A stretch of 64,000 nucleotides of DNA from Paulownia fortunei. Lineage: Eukaryota; Streptophyta; Magnoliopsida; Lamiales; Paulowniaceae. The DNA lies in NCBI GenBank assembly GCA_019321725.1, contig CM033118.1, positions 9,450,071 to 9,514,070 of the forward strand, read 5' to 3'. The stretch's first letter is position 1, and each line of letters opens with the position of its first letter. Both the position numbers and the translations under genes were made by a program. Below are positions 10,613 to 11,260 of this stretch, in pieces. The notes beneath the pieces were generated by a model. The model was not told the DNA's origin and made no database searches. It saw nothing but the letters and a program-made list of their open reading frames with translations.

Positions 10613-11260
10613 GTTTCTTCGAGTCGCAAATTCAACTGCATTTGTGTCTTTTGTGGATCTAATCTAGTAAAAATGGTGAGTTTAGAGGTGCAGGCAATAA
10701 CCTTGGTAGAACTTTAGCAGAAAGAAAAAATCATTTAGTATATGGGGGAGGCAGTTTGGGATTAATAGAGAGTGTTGCTATTTCTGCTCATATAGGAGGA
10801 GTCAAAGTTCTGGAAGTTATCCCAAAATCTTTAACAGTACAGAATATCACAGGTATGACCATCGAAGATGAGCTAAAAGTGTCACATATTTAGGACAAAA
10901 TACCTAATATGTTAAACAATGCGGATACATTCATCATTTTACCTGCCAGTTTTGGTACACTGGAGAAATTATTCCAAGTTGTCTCTTAGGCACAGTTCAA
11001 CATTCACCAAAAACCTATAGGTATTCTTAATGTTAATGGTTTTTATGATGGTTTGCTATCTTTTGTAGATCATGCTATAAAAAAAATATTTTATTTCACC
11101 GTTTACGAGACGAATCCTCATATATGCTCCGACACATGACCAGCTGATTGATCAACTTCTAGCATATGTGCTAGAACCTGATCCAGCCTTGGCCAATGTG
11201 GATTGGTCCAATAGGAACAATGGTCAAAAACACAAATTGAATTTGACTCTGAGTTTGTGA
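10613..11260 (+). pseudogene. Captured LOG-like gene (cytokinin-activating phosphoribohydrolase), broken
   Basis: LOG enzymes release active cytokinin bases from cytokinin riboside 5'-monophosphates in the cytosol. In order, the sequence gives ICVFCGSNL (the usual N-terminal strand), LAERKNHLVYGGGSLGL, a stretch like VIPKSLTVQNITG, FGTLEKLFQVVS, IHQKPIGILNVNGFYDGLLSF, and the C-terminus NLTLSL followed by TGA at 11258-11260. The length matches a full LOG protein of about 200 residues, and the whole frame is uninterrupted by intron-like sequence although plant LOG genes have several introns. Breaks: the start codon is lost (B keeps it), a frameshift near 10690, TAG at 10891 and 10987, and a one-base shift near 11085. 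The catalytic PGGxGTxxE motif has become PASFGTLEK. It lies in the sense strand of the retroelement between integrase and the polypurine tract. Confidence 0.88.

What the first reader, a model, noticed from the sequence alone, without database searches (positions are those of the whole stretch)
10613..11260. Host LOG (cytokinin-activating enzyme) gene captured inside an Athila retrotransposon
Seen: a near full-length LOG-like frame, from ICVFCGSNL to NLTLSL-stop, in the sense strand between integrase and the polypurine tract, with no intron-like interruptions. Known: plant LOG genes have several introns and control local cytokinin activation; LTR elements occasionally carry host mRNA pieces, as Bs1 does. 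Inferred: the element captured a spliced LOG mRNA by template switching. A family that once expressed a cytokinin-activating enzyme, or that scatters LOG-derived sequence able to give siRNAs, would be unusual. This copy is dead (stops, frameshifts, PGG motif changed).
Basis: partly seen in the sequence, partly recalled or inferred. Interest (0 to 1): 0.9.

Follow-up and report, generated by a model that had tools for sequence, protein, structure and literature searches.

The report
Retrotransposon carrying hormone-enzyme and virus-like genes
A plant jumping element with many copies in the Paulownia genome carries, next to its own genes, a cytokinin-activating-enzyme gene and a second gene resembling silencing-suppressor proteins of plant RNA viruses; both show signs of having been kept by natural selection, although the copies in this window are dead.

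Summary
Window 10607-11260 is a decayed, intronless LOG gene between an Athila-type integrase remnant and the 3' LTR (13002-14124). A second copy (47.9-55.9 kb, minus strand) has pol with LOG after it. Contig lengths point to the Paulownia fortunei assembly; 39 other full-length LOG copies were scored there (90-91% identity; 2316 candidates flagged). One copy outside the window has both LTRs, a 5-bp duplication and an open LOG. So this is not one recent capture: element-type LOGs from Lamiales, Populus, Reevesia and Citrus form one clade apart from the canonical LOGs tested, with a basic tail that is EAR-like (LxLxL) in 27 of 31. LOG in Citrus and Populus gypsy elements was already in print. 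New here: in 54 of 56 distinct loci LOG follows an open or decayed gene whose relatives match Pfam viral nucleic-acid-binding families (carlavirus/allexivirus silencing suppressors). Open copies of both genes show dN/dS below neutral simulation (LOG 0.29 vs 0.68; NABP 0.38 vs 0.69). I read it as an Athila lineage with a two-gene accessory module. What the module does (blunting silencing, reprogramming host cells) is inferred, not shown.

The parts
9422..9555 (+). Copy A: remnant of the integrase C-terminal end; start of the element sequence left in copy A
   Evidence: 84.9% DNA identity of 9422-10890 to 51996-50549; the matching stretch of copy B (51996-51863) is integrase C-terminus; direct search of copy A found nothing
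9814..10370 (+). Copy A: decayed NABP-like gene (viral nucleic-acid-binding-like)
   Evidence: tblastn with P0159 on L001 (L001:715-1268; L001 base 1 = window 9100); with Citrus proteins; open relatives match Carla_C4 / Viral_NABP
10607..11260 (+). Copy A: decayed LOG-like gene (217-codon frame in relatives), no introns, PGG changed to PAS
11379..11389 (+). GGGGACAATGT motif between LOG and LTR, also in other copies
   Evidence: its status as an Athila hallmark is recalled
13002..14124 (+). Copy A: 3' LTR (TGATAAG...), preceded by the polypurine tract GTGTGGGGGAATT; truncated at 14124
   Evidence: matches both LTRs of a copy on C20; LTR there is about 1.62 kb
51863..55883 (-). Copy B: protease, reverse transcriptase, RNase H and integrase of the same element family, with a weak match upstream of the protease (55883-55725, E 0.007)
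   Evidence: tblastn with Citrus proteins P0121, P0123, P0124, P0126
51129..51613 (-). Copy B: NABP-like gene, decayed
   Evidence: tblastn, 44-62% identity to Citrus pieces
50549..50833 (-). Copy B: first 95 codons of the LOG-like gene; the rest is missing relative to copy A
   Evidence: 82% identity to P0001; 50549/50548 joins the equivalents of 10890 and 11992
47913..50548 (-). Copy B: 3' end and LTR
   Evidence: 50548-48422 is 85.1% to 11992-14124; 47913-50015 is 91.3% to 58348-56247
56247..58348 (+). Third fragment: 3' end and LTR of the same family, next to an assembly gap (56147-56246)

Best explanation
Between integrase and the 3' LTR the family carries two accessory genes in sense orientation: (1) a 182-185-residue zinc-finger/basic protein related to the nucleic-acid-binding, silencing-suppressor proteins of carla-, allexi- and vitiviruses, and (2) a 217-residue LOG-fold protein with a disordered, basic, EAR-like (LxLxL) tail. 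LOG entered the lineage long ago, probably as spliced RNA, and both genes have since been kept by selection while the element replicated. Shown: anatomy, linkage, copy number, one LOG clade, dN/dS below neutral simulation. Inferred: they are made in trans from a downstream promoter (conserved TATA-like CTATAAAAG about 95 bases before the NABP start), NABP blunts host RNA silencing, and the LOG protein changes host cell state through cytokinin release and/or TOPLESS recruitment, together favouring element expression in dividing or germ-line cells.
For: Linkage: 58 of 60 fetched LOG loci have NABP upstream on the same strand, 56 of 60 an integrase tail; with four duplicate places removed 54 and 52 of 56. 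The two without NABP are the same element broken upstream. Conversely 8 of 8 loci fetched with the NABP query have LOG downstream and an integrase tail. Element on C20: LTRs 98.7% (blast), 1604 of 1619 aligned bases equal (MAFFT), TSD GTATA, TG..CA, PBS, open LOG. Host LOGs: 12 of 12 fetched loci split, none with NABP. NABP: two Paulownia copies 25.4 and 25.3 bits to Carla_C4, cut-off 20.9; of 45 relatives that I chose from 120 listed, 44 match Viral_NABP and 43 Carla_C4 at E<=0.01; 28 of 41 BFVD matches are named silencing suppressors or nucleic-acid/RNA-binding proteins of plant viruses. Citrus model P0124 joins pol, NABP and LOG; others join pol with LOG or NABP with LOG. Clade 99/98. LOG dN/dS 0.29, 0 of 400 simulations as low; NABP 0.38, 2 of 400. 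LOG model pLDDT 85.6, tail disordered; best PDB match 2a33, 1.0 A. Tail entropy 0.89 vs 1.97 in the adjacent linker.
Against: No expression, protein or biochemical data. NABP fold matches are individually weak (best E 0.054, none <=0.001) on a poor model (pLDDT 68, pTM 0.36). All 5 reversed NABP sequences matched an unrelated cysteine-rich family, down to 1.9e-4, so homology to viral proteins is likely, not proven. Only 6 of 10 relatives scanned exceed a curated cut-off; the two closest to the Citrus query do not, nor does P0124 (20.1 vs 20.9); the Paulownia copies are below the Viral_NABP cut-off (18.8, 18.5 vs 23); the window's own NABP piece gave no Pfam or PDB hit. In the C20 copy NABP is broken. 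dN/dS used open frames only, from one species, with non-independent pairs. Citrus LOGs have lost the PGGxGT motif and Orobanche tails lack LxLxL, so neither the enzyme nor the EAR reading fits every lineage.
Confidence: 0.72

Rival explanations
1. The element recently captured a spliced LOG mRNA of Paulownia by template switching, and LOG is a passenger that scatters LOG-derived sequence.
For: LOG is intronless while the host genes are split; many copies like this one are decayed (22 of 30 in the first set, the window copy included, lack an open 200-230-aa frame).
Against: Element-type LOGs of Paulownia, Rehmannia, Orobanche, Reevesia, Populus and Citrus form one clade apart from canonical LOG1/3/8 (99/98; Paulownia host LOGs were not in the tree); piecewise identity to host LOG loci of the same genome is 31-64%; dN/dS is well below neutral simulation.
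Confidence: 0.08
2. The LOG protein acts mainly as a cytokinin-activating enzyme that promotes cell division and so helps the element reach meristem or germ-line cells.
For: LOG fold (51% identity, 1.0 A to 2a33); PGGxGTxxE kept in the 28 non-Citrus rows of 31, Arg of MHxR kept in 29 of 31.
Against: The Lys of MHxRK is replaced in 30 of 31 rows and the 3 Citrus rows lack the PGGxGT motif; whether these matter for activity was not tested.
Confidence: 0.3
3. The LOG fold is now mainly a scaffold; its basic LxLxL tail recruits TOPLESS-type corepressors, as EAR-bearing pathogen effectors do.
For: Tail more conserved than its linker (entropy 0.89 vs 1.97), also in Citrus where the catalytic motif is gone; 30 of 31 full-length open Paulownia frames end in LxLxL; tail modelled as disordered; EAR consensus and pathogen effectors that act on TOPLESS described in PMC9956375 (passages).
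Against: 4 of 31 tree rows lack LxLxL, namely the three Orobanche rows and P0042; LxLxL is a short motif; no binding data.
Confidence: 0.25
4. The resemblance of the upstream gene to viral nucleic-acid-binding proteins is convergence of a basic patch plus zinc finger, not common descent.
For: Modest scores over a short region (about 25-90 residues); the reversed control reached 1.9e-4 to another cysteine-rich family; no viral sequence could be compared directly.
Against: 44 of 45 and 43 of 45 chosen relatives hit the two viral families, best E 2.4e-8 and 1.5e-8, 6 of 10 scanned above a curated cut-off, Paulownia copies too; 0 of 10 reversed or shuffled controls hit them.
Confidence: 0.25

Closest known systems
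Citrus and Populus Ty3/gypsy elements with a YgdH (LOG) domain (PMC9289625, abstract, passages and one section; it cites Steinbauerova et al. 2011, which I could not read)
   Same: LOG-type domain in Ty3/gypsy elements; Citrus models here (P0121, P0123, P0124) fall in the same LOG clade, and P0124 has the same NABP gene between integrase and LOG
   Different: The text I saw does not mention the NABP partner, the tail, selection, or Lamiales and Malvales; the Citrus copies seen here have lost the PGGxGT motif
Athila clade of Ty3/gypsy (Athila4, Diaspora, Bagy-2, Cyclops; named in PMC6317226 passages)
   Same: Order PR-RT-RH-INT, no room for the extra RNase H between RH and INT that marks angiosperm Tat, 5-bp TSD, PBS, PPT
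   Different: The space after pol holds NABP and LOG; no env-like ORF between LOG and 3' LTR in the one copy examined
Cysteine-rich proteins of carla-, allexi-, mandari- and vitiviruses (Pfam Carla_C4, Viral_NABP)
   Same: Small, with a basic patch and a Cys motif; Pfam matches; viral ones have a nuclear localisation signal and zinc finger (PMC12172455 passages)
   Different: Matched over part of the protein only; encoded by a retrotransposon; no suppressor activity shown
Phalaenopsis gypsy elements with an AlkB-type RNA demethylase (PMC9289625, abstract, passages and one section)
   Same: Plant gypsy lineage that fixed an extra enzyme gene and kept it
   Different: Tat/Ogre-like layout, one extra enzyme, with activity shown in vitro
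Insect R1 LINEs with a viral helicase domain (PMC4686597, search listing with start of abstract only)
   Same: Retrotransposon with a plant-RNA-virus-like domain
   Different: Non-LTR, helicase, insect

Membership tests
Athila clade (Ty3/gypsy) | LTRs starting TG, ending CA, with short target-site duplication (general LTR-element feature) | tested here: met
   C20 copy: TG..CA, TSD GTATA
Athila clade (Ty3/gypsy) | PR, RT, RNase H, integrase in this order and no second RNase H, which marks Tat (PMC6317226 passages) | tested here: met
   Copy B: RH match ends 53108, the next Citrus pol match starts 53080 and runs into integrase
Athila clade (Ty3/gypsy) | RT/INT phylogenetic position inside Athila | not tested
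   No RT tree was built; similarity to Citrus pol only
Athila clade (Ty3/gypsy) | env-like ORF after pol (recalled for some Athila elements; not clade-defining) | tested here: inconclusive
   None seen between LOG and the 3' LTR of the one copy examined: longest sense stretch 59 codons; NABP and LOG occupy the place after pol
LOG (type-I phosphoribohydrolase) | LOG fold | tested here: met
   pLDDT 85.6; 2a33 TM 0.77 by query length, 0.96 by target length, E 3.3e-25
LOG (type-I phosphoribohydrolase) | PGGxGTxxE motif | tested here: met
   Met in 26 of 31 full open Paulownia frames and in the 28 non-Citrus rows of 31; not met in the window copy or in the 3 Citrus rows
LOG (type-I phosphoribohydrolase) | Enzyme activity on cytokinin nucleotides | not testable with these tools
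   needs protein
Viral nucleic-acid-binding / cysteine-rich proteins | Pfam match above curated cut-off | tested here: met
   Carla_C4 25.4 and 25.3 bits in two Paulownia copies (cut-off 20.9); 6 of 10 relatives above a cut-off, best Viral_NABP 33.8 vs 23; Viral_NABP below cut-off in Paulownia, and 4 of 10 relatives below both
Viral nucleic-acid-binding / cysteine-rich proteins | Same fold | tested here: inconclusive
   Poor model; 28 of 41 BFVD hits are of this group but none has E<=0.001
Viral nucleic-acid-binding / cysteine-rich proteins | RNA silencing suppression | not testable with these tools
   needs bench work
EAR-motif proteins | LxLxL or DLNx(x)P (PMC9956375) | tested here: met
   30 of 31 full open Paulownia frames; 27 of 31 tree rows; 87 of 120 listed hits in the last 14 residues; not in Orobanche
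EAR-motif proteins | Binding to TOPLESS-type corepressors | not testable with these tools
   needs bench work

The most novel reading that the evidence does not exclude
A plant retrotransposon lineage carries a virus-like effector cassette: an RNA-virus-type silencing suppressor plus a LOG-fold protein converted, by a basic LxLxL tail, into a corepressor-recruiting effector (with or without cytokinin release). The cassette has been held under selection since before the split of the lineages sampled, so the element actively counters host silencing and reprograms host cells as a pathogen would; NABP genes of flexuous RNA viruses and of Athila-type elements share one origin, with transfer in one direction or the other.
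Probability: 0.27. Interest if true: 0.95.

Novelty: new variant of a known kind. Interest (0 to 1): 0.8.

Why it matters
Plant transposons are usually pictured as passive targets of silencing. A high-copy Athila-type lineage that keeps, under selection, a gene of the viral silencing-suppressor family together with a hormone-enzyme gene would be a direct, testable case of an element carrying its own anti-silencing and cell-reprogramming factors. It would give a new place to look for the origin of the cysteine-rich proteins of carla-, allexi- and vitiviruses. There is a practical side too: LOGs of this clade stand in public databases as hypothetical proteins or as LOG genes (many entries in Reevesia and Orobanche, Populus entries named LOGL10). 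Where these are element copies, which I could show only for Paulownia and Citrus, they would inflate LOG family counts.

Tried and rejected
Rejected: recent capture from the Paulownia host (tree and host loci); chance frame; LOG as a plain host pseudogene (58 of 60 loci have NABP upstream).

Led nowhere or weak: IMG/VR scan found no relatives; the NABP model is too poor for a fold verdict; no tandem array at score 200 or more; Steinbauerova et al. 2011 not held (a wrong DOI tried); paper searches for NABP-like genes in retrotransposons showed none in their listings; one search was rejected for a character. Linkage of NABP and LOG outside Paulownia and Citrus could not be tested; P0075 and P0165 both list a longest contig of 8723 bases, which only suggests it. 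I considered that the A-rich leader before LOG (43 of 56 loci matched my pattern) is an old poly(A) join of a captured RNA; not testable here. A Pfam scan that included copy B NABP pieces failed because a piece has a stop and those pieces were not scanned in another form.

Full report
What is there. The frame reported at 10613-11260 is a LOG-type gene: Pfam Lysine_decarbox 4e-20, Arabidopsis At2g37210 (2a33) E=3.5e-39. It has stops, frame breaks and PAS in place of PGG, and no introns. The best relatives are 217-residue intact proteins of Paulownia fortunei and unnamed contigs, 77-81% identical (P0001-P0012). The window was placed at C14:9450071-9514070 of a 509-Mb assembly. Two contig lengths of that assembly (27,090,522 and 24,664,501) equal the longest-contig lengths listed for Pfo_005286 and Pfo_008077 of Paulownia fortunei, so I take it to be that genome.

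The element. A second copy lies on the minus strand of the window. Matches to Citrus proteins run from the protease side (55384-54855, with a weak match upstream at 55883-55725, E 0.007) through RT (54474-53793), RNase H (53554-53108) and integrase (53080-51863), followed by an NABP-like gene (51613-51129) and the first 95 codons of LOG (50833-50549). The two copies are 84.9% (9422-10890) and 85.1% (11992-14124) identical; copy B lacks the stretch between. Copy A starts inside the last integrase codons and its 3' LTR starts at 13002. A copy on C20, read as two separate stretches, has LTRs of about 1.62 kb, 98.7% identical by blast (15 differences in 1619 aligned bases by MAFFT), a GTATA duplication on both sides, TG..CA ends, TTTTTGGCGCCGTTGCCGGGGA next to the 5' LTR (taken as primer-binding site) and GTGTGGGGGAATT before the 3' LTR. 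Its LOG frame (L031) is open, 217 residues; its NABP is present but broken. The absence of room for a second RNase H speaks against the angiosperm Tat layout as described in PMC6317226 (passages). I name the clade Athila on this and on recalled hallmarks, without an RT tree.

Copy number and linkage. The LOG DNA search scored 40 full-length matches, the window's own and 39 others at 90-91%, plus one short piece, out of 2316 first-look candidates. A canonical LOG1 protein query scored 150 places out of 3256 candidates, each a single-stretch match, mostly residues 5-202; by my count 103 of the 150 rows have no stop inside. The NABP query scored 150 of 3825 candidates. Of 60 LOG loci with about 1.5 kb flanks (L001-L060), 58 have an NABP match on the same strand and 56 an integrase-tail match. 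Four loci repeat a place already counted (L048, L050, L051, L056); without them the counts are 54 and 52 of 56, and two further pairs (L017/L018, L054/L055) have identical 1.8-kb cores at different places. The two without NABP are the same element broken upstream. In the other direction, 8 of 8 loci fetched with the NABP query have LOG downstream on the same strand and an integrase tail. Open LOG frames of 200-230 residues: 8 of 30 in the set chosen by likeness to the window, 25 of 26 in the set chosen by protein score, a set biased to intact copies; open NABP frames 4 of 30 and 8 of 26; both open in 11 of 56.

Host LOG genes. A search with the last 81 residues of LOG1 gave host-type places at 71-90% identity over about 48-57 residues; all 12 fetched (L079-L090, some near-duplicates of each other) show further LOG blocks separated by gaps, and none has an NABP match. 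Element LOG matches these loci at 31-64% per piece.

One clade. In a tree of 38 rows, the 31 element-type rows (Paulownia, Rehmannia, Orobanche, Reevesia, Populus, Citrus and unnamed contigs) are one side of a branch with 99/98 support; canonical LOG1, 3 and 8 lie outside, and two Xanthoceras proteins without the tail are sister. The Lamiales rows group together with one unnamed row (100/99). I chose the rows from 120 listed of 2422 hits and from the Citrus models; Paulownia host LOGs were not included. Element context was seen only for Paulownia (window, loci) and Citrus (gene models joining pol and LOG); for Populus it rests on PMC9289625, and for Reevesia, Rehmannia and Orobanche on numbers of entries and clade membership.

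Selection. Among unique full-length open frames (29 LOG, 217 of 406 pairs with dS>0.03; 8 NABP, 18 of 28 pairs), the ratio of mean dN to mean dS is 0.29 and 0.38. Neutral simulation with the observed substitution spectrum and no stops allowed gives 0.68 and 0.69; 0 of 400 and 2 of 400 simulations were as low. The pairs are not independent, and open frames only were used, so this is evidence for constraint, not a measure of it.

The tail and the active site. Across the 31 rows PGGxGTxxE is kept except in the three Citrus rows; the Arg of MHxR is kept in 29 of 31; the following Lys of canonical LOGs is replaced in 30 of 31. The last eight columns have mean entropy 0.89 bits, against 1.97 in the adjacent linker and 1.19 overall. 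LxLxL stands in the last nine residues of 27 of 31 rows; the three Orobanche rows and P0042 lack it; all 31 have at least two basic residues in the last 14. 87 of 120 listed proteins have LxLxL in their last 14 residues. Aligned chains of 2a33 and 1ydh continue with WEMERIG- and WKVEELG-type ends and no such tail in the part shown. The AF2 model has a confident LOG fold (pLDDT 85.6) and pLDDT under 50 from residue 202; the best PDB match is 2a33 at 1.0 A. EAR is defined as LxLxL or DLNx(x)P, most often C-terminal, and pathogen effectors with or acting on this system are described (PMC9956375, abstract and passages).

The partner gene. A contiguous Citrus stretch (P0124 737-917) found 234 proteins, of which 120 were listed; 49 of the 120 have 180-186 residues, 58 have 100-179. 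Of 45 near-full-length relatives that I aligned, 44 match Viral_NABP and 43 Carla_C4 at E<=0.01, best 2.4e-8 and 1.5e-8. Of 10 relatives scanned singly, 6 exceed a curated cut-off, and the Citrus-like P0132 and P0133 do not. Two Paulownia copies reach 25.4 and 25.3 bits to Carla_C4 (cut-off 20.9), with Viral_NABP below its cut-off. The window's own NABP piece matched nothing in Pfam or the PDB. As controls, 0 of 10 reversed or shuffled sequences matched the two families, though all 5 reversed ones matched Stress-antifung, down to 1.9e-4. BFVD: 41 matches at E<=10, none at 0.001, but 28 of 41 are named silencing suppressors or nucleic-acid/RNA-binding proteins, of Alpha- or Betaflexiviridae as far as I recall. 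Viral cysteine-rich proteins of this kind are described as silencing suppressors with a nuclear localisation signal and zinc finger, one acting as a transcription factor that induces hyperplasia (PMC12172455, passages). CTATAAAAG lies about 95 bases before the NABP start in the six open copies printed and is found exactly in the 5' part of 50 of 56 loci, which hints at a separate promoter; no splice signal was tested.

How it probably works. Steps shown: both genes lie inside an LTR element family; they stay open in many copies; their change is constrained. Steps inferred: expression in trans, silencing interference by NABP, cell-state change by LOG through cytokinin and/or corepressor recruitment. 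The loss of the catalytic motif in Citrus with the tail kept favours a tail function there.

What is in print. PMC9289625 (section read) reports the YgdH/LOG domain in Ty3/gypsy consensuses of Citrus sinensis, C. clementina and, without its filter, Populus trichocarpa, among 121 angiosperm genomes, in line with Steinbauerova et al. 2011 (not seen). So LOG in such elements is known. I saw no paper on the NABP partner, the tail or selection in the listings, within a library that lacks most subscription journals.

Noticed in passing
window 1-2420 and 6735-9153: A minus-strand gypsy pol of another family is present twice at 99% identity, about 6.7 kb apart; copy A of the element begins close after the second one.
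   Followed up: no
window 19908-20243 (-): ClpS-like ORF of 112 residues (Pfam ClpS 9.5e-19), possibly a host gene or gene piece.
   Followed up: partly
window 17716-19101: Long imperfect inverted repeats (330-nt arms 92% complementary, outer arms of 168 nt at 86%), hairpin-like.
   Followed up: no
window 30054-47000 and 58300-63033: A family of about 75-95% identical blocks of 0.2-4 kb in both orientations; no tandem array at score 200 or more.
   Followed up: no
P0013, P0095 (Xanthoceras sorbifolium): LOG-like proteins sister to the element clade and without the tail; P0013 keeps the Lys of MHxRK. Possibly a host LOG subfamily close to the source of the capture.
   Followed up: partly
L032, L037, L044, L019, L059 upstream of LOG: An A-rich tract directly before the LOG start (43 of 56 loci matched the pattern, 95% A), of unknown role.
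   Followed up: partly
P0121, P0123, P0124 (Citrus): Citrus element LOGs have a degenerate PGGxGT motif but an intact KKYKLDLTLRL tail.
   Followed up: partly
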